A DNA stretch of 41,263 nucleotides, taken from a bacterium. Its GTDB lineage: Bacteria > Patescibacteriota > Patescibacteriia > UBA1558 > S5-K13. Each line of letters begins with the position of its first letter. The first letter of the stretch is position 1. The notes under the pieces were generated by a model, which made no database searches, was not told where the DNA came from, and saw only the letters and a list, made by a program, of their open reading frames with translations. Below, piece after piece: positions 29,938 through 34,465 of this stretch. The translations under genes and the position numbers were made by a program. The DNA lies in assembly GCA_029555085.1 (NCBI GenBank), contig JAKPTO010000013.1, positions 1-41,263 of the forward strand, read 5' to 3'.

Positions 29938-30990
29938 ATGAGAGAGAAGACACATTATGAAAATATCGTAGGGGGTACGGAAGCAGAAAAGAAAAAAGCA
30001 AGAGAAGAACTTCAGAAATTTTTTGATGGCGACGGTGGATTTTTTAAATACGAAATTGAAAAGTCTCCAGAAGATTTAGAAATAATAAAAAAAACAGAAT
30101 CAATTGTTGATAAAATAATTTCTCAATATGGAGGGGATATTAGAAAACTTCCATTGGATAATATACACATTTTAAAAGAAGGGAGCGTTGACCAAATGAC
30201 GGACGGAGAATTGGCGGTGGGTCTGCATAAGCCACTTTGTTTGCACATTGGCATAGAGAAGCAAAAATCAAAATTAGTATTTGCAAGCTTTGTAGCACAC
30301 GAATTATTTCATTTAAAATCTTATAAATCTGCTAGAGTCGGTAATTCAGGAGAAGATGTGCGTCTTTATAGAAGCGGATTTTCAATGGTGGATAAAAAGG
30401 ACACTTCAAAAGAGTGTGGAGCCGAGATAGAGTATTTTTCAAAATTAGAAGAAGCAATTGTATCAGAATGTGTAAAAAAATTTTTGGAAGAAATTGAAAA
30501 AGAAGATCTTTTTATGGATGAAATTAATGCAATAAACAAGATAAAGAATTGGGTAGCTGGATTTTGTATAAAAAATGGTAAAACCCCAGATCAGGTTAAG
30601 GAGTTGATTATTGAAGAAGTAAAGTATATAGATGATCCACAAAGTATAGTCAATTCTGTAATTTCTTTTTCTAGGAAAGAATCAGAGAGACAAGCGTATG
30701 CAGCCGGCATATTCAGTGCTTATTTAGAAGAAAATGGTGTTGAGTTTTTAGAAAGAAGAAATGAAAGAATAATGCTATATAAATTGTTAGATTATTTAGT
30801 TAAAAATTCAAATGGAAGATTTAAAGATAGGGACGAAATTTTTGATGAATTTGCAAGAGCTAATTTTTCTGGGAATTATTTAAAGATAGCAAGAATTATT
30901 GAAAGTATTTTAGGTAGTGGTTCTTTTAGAAAACTAGCAGAAGATTTTAGCAATGTTAATCAAGAAGAATATTCATTGGATGCTAAATAA
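29938..30990 (+). CDS. Putative zinc-metallopeptidase-like protein (HExxH)
   Basis: FVAHELFHLKSYKS; otherwise unrecognised. Confidence 0.6.
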   Translation: MREKTHYENIVGGTEAEKKKAREELQKFFDGDGGFFKYEIEKSPEDLEIIKKTESIVDKIISQYGGDIRKLPLDNIHILKEGSVDQMTDGELAVGLHKPLCLHIGIEKQKSKLVFASFVAHELFHLKSYKSARVGNSGEDVRLYRSGFSMVDKKDTSKECGAEIEYFSKLEEAIVSECVKKFLEEIEKEDLFMDEINAINKIKNWVAGFCIKNGKTPDQVKELIIEEVKYIDDPQSIVNSVISFSRKESERQAYAAGIFSAYLEENGVEFLERRNERIMLYKLLDYLVKNSNGRFKDRDEIFDEFARANFSGNYLKIARIIESILGSGSFRKLAEDFSNVNQEEYSLDAK

Positions 30991-30996
30991 TTTTTT

Positions 30997-31086
30997 GGAG
31001 AGTTGCCAGAGTGGTTGAATGGGACGCTCTCGAAAAGCGTTGTCTCGTTTACGGGACCGGGAGTTCGAATCTCTCACTCTCCGCCA
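30997..31086 (+). tRNA. tRNA-Ser(CGA), CCA encoded
   Basis: ggagagt...actctccgcca; anticodon loop ctcgaaa; long variable arm. Confidence 0.93.
31041..31085 (+). repeat. att-like direct repeat, copy 1 (variable arm to acceptor of tRNA-Ser)
   Basis: tgtctcgtttacgggaccgggagttcgaatctctcactctccgcc; 44/45 identical to 32792-32836. Confidence 0.9.
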
Positions 31087-31155
31087 AGTTTCACTTTTTG
31101 CGATAATGAAGATGGATTAAGTTTATTTAAATATTTTTAATTAATTTAAAAACAC

Positions 31156-32406
31156 ATGGTAAACAAACAAACAAGAAATATACTTCTACTCCTTTGCGCA
31201 ATCCTAATAATTGCAATCGGAGTGTATGCAGGAGCAAAGTATATATGTCATACATATTGTAATGACAATAGTTCCTCTGATATGGTTTCCAATAAAAAAG
31301 TTAAGCCCAAAGGAATGATGTTGTTAATAGAATTTAACAATACTGATGGTTTAGCAAATATGGTAAGTGATATGAGAGATAGAAACATAAAGGGTTTGTT
31401 GATGGTAAATGCAGATTTCATTAAGAAACATGCTGATGAACTCAAAGAAATACTGAAAACAGGAGTTGTCGAACTCTGTCCATCATATGACCCAGAACCT
31501 TTCTGGGGAATGTCATATGACAAACAGTATAATATAATTAAGGAGATGTTAGAGAATTCAAAAAAGTATCTAGGTGTTACACCAAGAGTAATTAGTTCTA
31601 GATACATGGCGTCTGACGAGACAACCATAAAAGTAGCTGATGAGCTAGGAATTGAATATATTACAGCAAGAGGTACTACAGAATTAAGAACAACTATCTA
31701 TAAGCCAGAAGAATACAATACAAAAATTATCTCTGTTTCAAATATAGATATTCCTGAATTCAAATACGGAAGTTTCTGTGACTACAGCTTCTATGAAAGA
31801 GCTGGAGAACCTAAGGACATGGAGGATCAGTTTAAGAGAGCAATTCAAAACGAGAAGATTATGGCTGTATCACATACATATATTGGAGGATACAAGGAAA
31901 GATGGAATGAGATGTGGCATAGATTGTGGGATAATTATAATGTTGAGTGGGTTGGTTTAGATACACTTGGAACAATAGATAAGACTATGCCAATGTGGCA
32001 GATTCCTGTGAACAAGAATGCTCCGTATACTCCGGAGAAAATTAGACCAAAGTTAGAGTTCCAAGACGAGGCTAATGTTATTAATCCATGCAAGGTAGAA
32101 GATCTTAATGAGGGTACATCATATGTTCCAAAGAAAAAGGACAGAGTTGTAATATTCCATAATGGAAGTGGGAATATGTGTTTAGACTTATTAGCTTACC
32201 TTAGGGAAAACAATATTGAATATGAGGAACACAAGACAACAGATACTGATTTTGTCTCTCAATTAAATTCCTATAAGAAAGGAAAGAGTGAGGGTGTTTC
32301 AGATTCATACGGATATTATCCAATAATCTTTATTGGCGACAGAGCATTTTCAGGATTTAATGAAAACATCAAGAATGAGATAAACGGATTGGTTGGGATC
32401 AAATAG
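31156..32406 (+). CDS. Membrane-anchored polysaccharide-deacetylase (NodB)-like protein fused to a glutaredoxin-like domain
   Basis: N-terminal TM; LGVTPRVISSRYMASDETTIKVADELGIEYITARGTTELR; C-term RVVIFHNGSGNMCLDLLAYLRENNIEYEEHKTTD...YYPIIFIGDRAFSGFNENIKNEI. Confidence 0.65.
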   Translation: MVNKQTRNILLLLCAILIIAIGVYAGAKYICHTYCNDNSSSDMVSNKKVKPKGMMLLIEFNNTDGLANMVSDMRDRNIKGLLMVNADFIKKHADELKEILKTGVVELCPSYDPEPFWGMSYDKQYNIIKEMLENSKKYLGVTPRVISSRYMASDETTIKVADELGIEYITARGTTELRTTIYKPEEYNTKIISVSNIDIPEFKYGSFCDYSFYERAGEPKDMEDQFKRAIQNEKIMAVSHTYIGGYKERWNEMWHRLWDNYNVEWVGLDTLGTIDKTMPMWQIPVNKNAPYTPEKIRPKLEFQDEANVINPCKVEDLNEGTSYVPKKKDRVVIFHNGSGNMCLDLLAYLRENNIEYEEHKTTDTDFVSQLNSYKKGKSEGVSDSYGYYPIIFIGDRAFSGFNENIKNEINGLVGIK

Positions 32407-32411
32407 AAAAA

Positions 32412-32472
32412 TGGTTACGATGGTTGGATTCGAATCAACGACCTTTAAGTTATGAATCTAACGAACTTCCAT
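32412..32472 (-). pseudogene. Orphan tRNA-Met-like 3' half (CAU)
   Basis: Reverse strand: ttcgttagattcataacttaaaggtcgttgattcgaatccaaccatcgtaacca; anticodon loop, T-arm and CCA but no pairing 5' acceptor found. Confidence 0.55.
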
Positions 32473-32637
32473 TCTACTCTGTTTAATATTTTTACAACCA
32501 TTCATCTTTAAAACACTAAGTCCCATAGCTTTCAATGTTGATATTATCTTTGGAGACATTCTAACCTTGCTCTTGTCTTCTTGGAGGGAACTATCTAGTA
32601 CTTTATTATAACTATTCTTTATCTTCTGATGACTACG

Positions 32638-32669
32638 AATGATTGCGTGCTTCGCGCACAATCATTCAG
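32638..32669. repeat. Strong hairpin inside the tRNA-Ser island
   Basis: GAATGATT-GCG-tgcttcg-CGC-ac-AATCATTC. Confidence 0.7.
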
Positions 32670-32791
32670 AGCTTTGTTCATTCCCATTGTGTCTATTCTC
32701 TGTAGTTACATGCATATTAATATCTCTGTATGAATTAGTATTAGAAATTGTTGCAATTATGCATAGTATTAGTATGTGCGGAAGGTCGTAC

Positions 32792-32836
32792 TGTCTCGTT
32801 TACGGGACTGGGAGTTCGAATCTCTCACTCTCCGCC
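32792..32836 (+). repeat. att-like direct repeat, copy 2 (orphan tRNA-Ser 3' end)
   Basis: tgtctcgtttacgggactgggagttcgaatctctcactctccgcc, no 5' tRNA half upstream. Confidence 0.9.
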
Positions 32837-32907
32837 TATAGAATTGAAATATTTAAGAAAATTGTCTAGGGGTTAAATATAGACATTGATGATTTAATCG
32901 AATAAAT

Positions 32908-34083
32908 ATGAAAAATTTTGAAAAAATTGAATGTAATCAAAAACAGGAAACACCAGTTTTTCGTTTTGAAGATTTTAGGGGTAGAAATTTATCTGATCAA
33001 AATTTTTCAAATATTCCTGCTGATGTTTTAAGAACAGTAGAATTTGATACTGAAACAGTTTGGCCAGAAAAGGAAAAATTGCCACAAGATTTTAATCCAG
33101 AAAAATTTTTAGAGGAAAGTAAAAATCCTGGACTTGGAATTAGAGAATTGCATGAGCAGGGGATAACTGGTCAAGGAATTGTCGTTGCAATTATTGATCA
33201 AAGATTAGATATAAATCATCCAGAGTATAAAAATTCGGTTTCAAGTTATCATGAATATGGAGAGACCGAAAAAGAAGGGATAAGTATGCATGGCCCAGCC
33301 GTAGCGAGTTTACTTGTTGGAAAAGATTGCGGTGTATCACCTGGGGCAAAATTAGTTTATAAAGCCGTTCCATCTGGCAGAGAGTTTCTTTTAAGGGCAG
33401 AGGCATTGATGGACATTGTTGAGGAAAATAAAATTTTACCTGCAAACGAGAAAGTCAAAATCGTCAGTTGTTCAATTGGCTATGTAAAGGAAAAACCAGA
33501 GCCGGGTCTTGATGAATGGCTTGAAGCATTAAAGATCGCCAAAGAAGCTGGAATTTTTGTAGTGGATGTGGGCGGTGATCAAATTGATATTCCGTTTAGT
33601 GGTGGTGGAAGCCCTGAAGATAAAGACAATTTTGAAAATTATTTTCCTTGGTTGTCTCAAAACAACAACAACGAAGAACTAGATAAGCTTGTCGCTGAAG
33701 GAAATATTGATGGGGTATTAAAAAAACTAAGAGAAACCAGAAAAGACGAGTTATCAAGTATTTCCGATTTAGAATTACGAAAAAAGATCGAAACTCGTTT
33801 AGAAGAAAAGAGAAGTGAAATAATTGTTCCATCTGATTATCGCACCATGGCGTCTTCGTGGAGAAAAGAGGGGCAATATATGTACAACGGAAAAGGTGGA
33901 ATTAGTTGGTCTGTTCCTTATCTCGCTGGACTTTTTGCTTTAGCTTTACAAGTAAATCCAAATCTTCAAAGAGGGGAAATAGCAGAAATTGTAAAAGAGA
34001 GCACAGTAGTAAATAAAAAAGGTTTGAGGATTGTAAATCCAAAAGGTATTATTGATTTAGCAAGAGAAAGAATTAGAATTTAG
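32908..34083 (+). CDS. Subtilisin-like (S8) serine protease, no signal peptide
   Basis: VVAIIDQRLDINHPEY (Asp), SMHGPAVASLL (His), GGISWSVPYLAGLFALALQVNP (Ser). Confidence 0.85.
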   Translation: MKNFEKIECNQKQETPVFRFEDFRGRNLSDQNFSNIPADVLRTVEFDTETVWPEKEKLPQDFNPEKFLEESKNPGLGIRELHEQGITGQGIVVAIIDQRLDINHPEYKNSVSSYHEYGETEKEGISMHGPAVASLLVGKDCGVSPGAKLVYKAVPSGREFLLRAEALMDIVEENKILPANEKVKIVSCSIGYVKEKPEPGLDEWLEALKIAKEAGIFVVDVGGDQIDIPFSGGGSPEDKDNFENYFPWLSQNNNNEELDKLVAEGNIDGVLKKLRETRKDELSSISDLELRKKIETRLEEKRSEIIVPSDYRTMASSWRKEGQYMYNGKGGISWSVPYLAGLFALALQVNPNLQRGEIAEIVKESTVVNKKGLRIVNPKGIIDLARERIRI

Positions 34084-34465
34084 TTGTAGACGAGGAATAT
34101 TTTGAATTCACCCGGAATTTCTCTGTATTTTTACATAGAGCACCTTTGTGAGTGGGAAGAAAGTATAGGTAAGGTAATTCTACTTCTCCAGAAAAATAGT
34201 TTGCTCCACCGAGTCCGCATTAGTATTTTTAATTATTTGGATTTTACTCGAAATAGTTTCGAGCTTCGTCCAAAAAACATTGCTACGACAATTTTTTGTA
34301 GCGCAGATTTGTATATCCCACTATTGATAGAATTTTTGTTAAATTTTAACAGTATTCTTAATCAACTATACATTGGATATGTTAAAATTAATATGTTTAC
34401 CATTGTATTTTGGTCTAAAATATAGTAATATAATAGTATCGTATTAATTATTTAACTATAAAATT

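What the first reader, a model, noticed from the sequence alone, without database searches (positions are those of the whole stretch)
30997..32836. Small tRNA-Ser-bounded integrative island without an integrase
A complete tRNA-Ser(CGA) is followed 1,751 bp later by a 44/45-nt direct repeat of its variable arm/T-arm/acceptor with no 5' half. This is the standard footprint of tyrosine-integrase insertion at a tRNA 3' end. The interval carries one clear gene and no recombinase, implying a non-autonomous or decayed element mobilised in trans.
Basis: partly seen in the sequence, partly recalled or inferred. Interest (0 to 1): 0.7.

Follow-up and report, generated by a model that had tools for sequence, protein, structure and literature searches.

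The report
Integrase-less tRNA-Ser island, foreign cargo
A short stretch of DNA carrying one gene from a distantly related class of ultra-small bacteria (Dojkabacteria) sits between a serine-tRNA gene and a copied piece of that gene's end, the usual scar of a mobile element slotting in there, but it has no enzyme of its own and looks like a patched-together leftover rather than a new kind of element.

Summary
A complete tRNA-Ser(CGA) at 30997-31086 is followed 1,751 bp later by a 44/45-nt copy of its 3' end (32792-32836); these are the only copies in the 1.02-Mb genome. The interval is foreign. Its one gene (31156-32406, divergent polysaccharide deacetylase plus thioredoxin-like domain) nests inside Candidatus Dojkabacteria (78-82% identical, while host and donor RpoB are about 45% identical) and keeps donor GC3. 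Donor homology runs into the donor's neighbouring tRNA-Met and breaks at 32471 against an unnoticed ISAs1-transposase C-terminal fragment. So the island is a mosaic: intact gene, tRNA-Met stump, IS fragment, about 145 bp of unknown DNA. It has no integrase, and the genome's only tyrosine recombinase looks like housekeeping Xer. A same-genus relative has one tRNA-Ser copy joined to sequence that in the window lies at 34287; relative to it 3.2 kb is extra here, so a second insertion (subtilase gene) probably lies behind the first, and the locus is a hotspot. Best reading: a decayed, CIME-like island at a tRNA-Ser hotspot. Mobilisation in trans is possible but not shown. New member of a known kind; the inter-class gene transfer is the interesting part.

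The parts
30997..31086 (+). tRNA-Ser(CGA), complete; its 3' half (31041-31085) is the proximal repeat (attL-like)
31087..31155 (.). 69-bp leader between tRNA and cargo start; no significant donor homology
   Evidence: shuffle p = 0.38
31156..32406 (+). cargo gene, 416 aa: N-terminal membrane anchor, divergent polysaccharide deacetylase domain, C-terminal thioredoxin/glutaredoxin-like domain; of Dojkabacteria origin
32412..32471 (-). last 60 nt of the donor's tRNA-Met gene, truncated at its 5' side and drifted (10 of 60 positions changed); pseudogene
32470..32646 (-). fragment coding for the C-terminal part of an ISAs1-family transposase; both IS ends missing
32637..32667 (.). 31-nt hairpin-forming inverted repeat; role unknown
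32647..32791 (.). 145 bp without recognisable relatives; holds two copies of TAGTATTAG (32736, 32764) near the distal repeat
32792..32836 (+). displaced 45-nt tRNA-Ser 3' fragment (attR-like), 44/45 identical
32837..34286 (+). probable second, outer insertion carrying a subtilase gene (32908-34083)
   Evidence: absent behind the tRNA of G001; no third tRNA relic recognisable
34287..34349 (+). ancestral downstream flank of the tRNA-Ser gene (terminator-like in G001), displaced 3.2 kb from the tRNA

Best explanation
A decayed, integrase-less integrative island (CIME-like remnant) at a tRNA-Ser(CGA) 3'-end hotspot of a Patescibacteria genome. Shown: a complete tRNA and a displaced 45-nt 3' fragment bound a foreign mosaic made of an intact gene plus part of the adjacent tRNA-Met from a Dojkabacteria-like donor, fused to an ISAs1 transposase fragment. 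Inferred: a site-specific recombinase acting on the tRNA-Ser 3' end integrated an element holding this DNA; the recombinase was encoded on a part since deleted or came from another element. Also inferred: the cargo gene is kept by selection while its surroundings erode, and an earlier insertion with a subtilase gene was pushed outward by this later one (tandem accretion).
For: Repeat geometry and uniqueness. Cargo absent from 52 relatives and from all same-class genomes of a phylum draw, nested in Dojkabacteria with strong support although RpoB of the two lineages is about 45% identical; donor-like GC3. Donor homology to 32471 abuts the ISAs1 fragment from 32470. Sister genome has one tRNA copy, and its post-tRNA flank lies at 34287 in the window. 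Different genes follow this tRNA in G001 and G002. No integrase in the genome but a Xer-like one shared with G001.
Against: No relative with the exact predicted empty junction. No integrase remnant was found in the island. The repeat core has this species' own variable arm, so it did not come straight from Dojkabacteria with the cargo. Homologous (Campbell-type) insertion would leave the same repeats.
Confidence: 0.62

Rival explanations
1. A compact non-autonomous element that is still mobile: the two repeats are functional att sites, and an integrase from other strains or elements excises and integrates it in trans, carrying the gene between hosts.
For: Near-identical repeats (44/45) while the tRNA-Met stump has drifted at 10 of 60 positions (p = 0.022) suggest that the last event at this tRNA is younger than the cargo's capture. 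Tyrosine integrases and a large serine recombinase occur in the same family.
Against: Seen in one genome only. No integrase of matching specificity was found. Content is broken and mosaic. p rises to 0.064 if the changed CCA end is counted, and gene conversion could keep the repeats alike.
Confidence: 0.15
2. Homologous, Campbell-type insertion: a DNA circle holding the 45-nt tRNA-Ser end recombined with the chromosome through host recombination after uptake of foreign DNA, with no site-specific recombinase.
For: Gives the same repeats; explains the lack of an integrase and the match of the core to this species' tRNA.
Against: 45 bp is short for homologous recombination, and a repeat that ends at the tRNA 3' end is the known mark of site-specific integration (PMC4383910). 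A foreign circle would still have to gain this species' tRNA end first.
Confidence: 0.13
3. A large serine recombinase, as in the ssrA islands of Dehalococcoides, rather than a tyrosine integrase, made this and other insertions behind tRNA-Ser(CGA).
For: In G001 a 440-aa large serine recombinase lies about 1.1 kb behind the same tRNA-Ser, pointing towards it. The Dehalococcoides islands insert in the T-loop of ssrA, leave direct repeats, form tandem arrays and include members without an integration module (PMC3146451).
Against: No second tRNA copy was found in the G001 contig. Serine integrases were not known to target tRNA genes (PMC4383910). The 45-nt identity is long for this class.
Confidence: 0.08
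4. Assembly or binning artefact: a Dojkabacteria fragment joined wrongly into the contig.
For: Fragmented 53-contig assembly.
Against: The tRNA-Ser variable arm of Dojkabacteria differs, so it offers no shared 45-nt join. The insert's tRNA-Met is broken by an IS fragment, unlike the identical functional donors. Host-lineage DNA is found on both sides in one contig.
Confidence: 0.02

Closest known systems
CIME, cis-mobilizable element (PMC5704250)
   Same: att-like repeats kept at both ends, no integration or transfer genes, sits in a probable tandem array behind a tRNA gene
   Different: Only 1.75 kb; descent from an ICE or IME is not shown; mosaic with an IS fragment and a foreign chromosomal piece
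tDNA-targeted genomic island (Islander, PMC4383910)
   Same: Complete tRNA gene and displaced 3' fragment in the same orientation mark the ends
   Different: No integrase gene, which the Islander definition requires
Dehalococcoides ssrA genomic islands without integration module (PMC3146451)
   Same: Tandem islands bounded by 3'-end repeats of an RNA gene; members without integrase; strain-specific cargo
   Different: There 20-bp repeats of tmRNA and CcrB-like serine recombinases; here 45 nt of tRNA-Ser and no recombinase identified
ISAs1 family insertion sequence
   Same: 177-bp fragment codes for the C-terminal part of the transposase
   Different: Truncated on both sides; does not explain the tRNA repeat

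Membership tests
tDNA-targeted genomic island | Complete tRNA gene plus displaced 3' fragment downstream in the same orientation | tested here: met
tDNA-targeted genomic island | Integrase gene inside the island | tested here: not met
   no recombinase match in the interval; only a Xer-like one elsewhere in the genome
tDNA-targeted genomic island | Insert foreign to the host lineage | tested here: met
tDNA-targeted genomic island | Relative with one tRNA copy joined directly to the island's right flank | tested here: inconclusive
   G001 has one copy, joined to sequence that matches window 34287-34349, not 32837
CIME | attL and attR retained | tested here: met
   44/45 repeat; function of the sites not tested
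CIME | Integration and transfer genes absent | tested here: met
CIME | Descends from an ICE or IME | not testable with these tools
   no remnant of conjugation or integrase genes and no related full element found
CIME | Can be mobilised by an element in cis | not testable with these tools
   needs reads or an experiment
Dehalococcoides-type ssrA island | Serine recombinase module of the same specificity | tested here: inconclusive
   a large serine recombinase lies near the same tRNA in G001; no repeat found there, and the window genome was not searched for one

The most novel reading that the evidence does not exclude
A minimal integrase-free cassette that still moves by using recombinases of other elements and carries single genes between classes of Patescibacteria, with tRNA-Ser(CGA) as docking site.
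Probability: 0.12. Interest if true: 0.65.

Novelty: new member of a known kind. Interest (0 to 1): 0.38.

Why it matters
It is a physically bounded case of a gene passing between two deeply separated classes of Patescibacteria (RpoB about 45% identical) and staying intact while the DNA around it decays. It also marks tRNA-Ser(CGA) as an insertion hotspot in this family. If the repeats prove active, it would show how such reduced genomes take up genes without integrases of their own.

Tried and rejected
Tandem tRNA duplication: rejected, the insert is Dojkabacteria DNA. Viral or plasmid origin: no match to the insert in phage or plasmid records; one weak viral-contig hit covers only the thioredoxin-like part. 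L061, the single viral contig with a 28-nt match to the tRNA end, is an unrelated tRNA-Ser gene. Short matches to the tail in five genomes are chance or shared hairpin stems. A third tRNA-Ser relic before 34287 is not significant, nor is one behind the G002 tRNA (p = 0.13). Donor homology upstream of the cargo start is not significant. An early reading that the whole tRNA-Met was present (note 2) was dropped when the ISAs1 fragment was found to abut it at 32470/32471. Structure prediction of the cargo gave pLDDT 53, so no fold search was made.

Full report
Observation. The tRNA-Ser(CGA) at 30997-31086 and the 45-nt partial copy at 32792-32836 (44/45, same strand, spacing 1751) are real. No other copy with up to three mismatches exists in the 1,024,725-base genome, and no other place in the window comes near the copy's score. 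The interval has one substantial gene and no recombinase gene.

What lies between. The gene 31156-32406 (416 aa) has a membrane anchor (sequence), a Pfam Polysacc_deac_1 match (2.8e-7) and a C-terminal match to a phage thioredoxin-domain family (5.6e-4). The usual NodB metal ligands (TFDDG, HxxxH; from general knowledge) are not visible in the corresponding stretches (FNNTDG, LCPSYDP), so enzymatic activity is uncertain. The gene is missing from 52 relatives and from every same-class genome of a 380-genome draw of the phylum; the 12 other genomes with a match there are all outside the class. Its nearest kin are Dojkabacteria genes, 82, 82 and 78% identical (the record of the third, L035, is titled only 'uncultured bacterium'), and a maximum-likelihood tree nests it inside them with strong support. 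The host is not a Dojkabacterium: its RpoB is 63-73% identical to order and class members in most comparisons and 45-48% to the Dojkabacteria genomes. GC3 of the gene is 0.312, against 0.08-0.22 for the other window genes and 0.29-0.31 for the donors. Change is concentrated at third codon positions (42%, against 11% at positions 1 and 2, compared with L036), as between the donors themselves, so the gene has stayed under purifying selection.

The joints. In three distinct Dojkabacteria genomes (L035, L036, L037; L082 and L083 appear to be the same sequences again) the gene is followed by a tRNA-Met on the other strand, identical in all. Window DNA stays 79-82% identical through the gene end into that tRNA and stops at 32471, after 60 of its 75 nt. 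Directly abutting, 32470-32646 on the minus strand codes for the C-terminal part of an ISAs1-family transposase: NCBIfam NF033564 at its last 48 positions (2.3e-4), PHROG families near their C-termini, tblastn to annotated ISAs1 transposases, and those transposases back to the whole window at E = 6e-12 and 2e-11. Neither IS end is present. A 31-nt hairpin (32637-32667) and DNA without relatives complete the island before the distal repeat. The island is therefore a mosaic with at least one illegitimate junction.

Order of events. The tRNA-Met stump differs from the donors at 10 of 60 positions, the distal tRNA-Ser copy from the proximal one at 1 of 45 (p = 0.022; 0.064 if the altered CCA end is counted). 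Both should drift freely after insertion, so capture and breakage of the tRNA-Met probably came before the last event at this tRNA-Ser. Gene conversion between the repeats would give the same picture. The core carries this species' variable arm, unlike G001 of the same genus and unlike Dojkabacteria, so the attachment core was not brought straight from Dojkabacteria.

The site in relatives. In G001 (same genus) the same Ig-domain gene (71% identical) lies 7 bp from a tRNA-Ser(CGA), with one tRNA copy only in that contig. The sequence directly behind that tRNA matches window 34287-34349 (score 65; background maximum 41, shuffle maximum 49). Relative to G001 the window thus has 3.2 kb extra behind the tRNA, of which the finding covers the first half. 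The second half, 32837-34286, carries a subtilase gene and has no recognisable tRNA relic at its far end; whether it is a separate older insertion or part of one unit is open. Further on, G001 has a cassette with a large serine recombinase, and G002 has other genes behind its tRNA. The locus behaves as a hotspot.

Who did it. The genome's single tyrosine recombinase sits among housekeeping genes on another contig and has a counterpart with an open frame of equal length in G001, so it is taken as the host Xer. Candidates are a lost or foreign tyrosine integrase (G003 has one directly behind tRNA-Gly) or a large serine recombinase as in the Dehalococcoides ssrA islands (PMC3146451). Position and length of the repeat favour the tyrosine class (PMC4383910), but this is inference.

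Classification. It works like a tRNA-bounded genomic island. By content it fits a CIME (PMC5704250) in the sense of att-like sites without movement genes, though descent from an ICE or IME is not shown, so it is called CIME-like only. It fails the Islander definition for lack of an integrase. The interest lies in the inter-class transfer and the hotspot, not in a new mechanism.

Noticed in passing
window 29938-30990: A 350-aa gene with an HExxH-like motif sits between the Ig-domain gene and the tRNA-Ser; in G001 those two are 7 bp apart, and G002 has a CorA-like gene there, so the upstream side of the tRNA is variable too.
   Followed up: partly
window 32837-34286: Subtilase gene (PF00082) in DNA that is absent behind the tRNA of G001; probably an older insertion or part of a larger one.
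   Followed up: partly
L050 3868-6205: Large serine recombinase and an unknown gene about 0.1-2.5 kb behind the same tRNA-Ser(CGA) in the sister genome.
   Followed up: partly
L120 5991-8824: A tyrosine recombinase (369-aa ORF) and a large serine recombinase-like ORF (542 aa) lie side by side in a genome of the same family.
   Followed up: no
L119 6750-7935: Tyrosine integrase directly behind tRNA-Gly(GCC), pointing towards it, in a genome of the same family; its far repeat was not found within the 12 kb read.
   Followed up: partly
L125 and L126, around position 1500: Two genomes of other families share a stretch of about 100 bp with a hairpin (TTGCGCGCTTCGCGCGCAA) like the one at window 32637-32667.
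   Followed up: no
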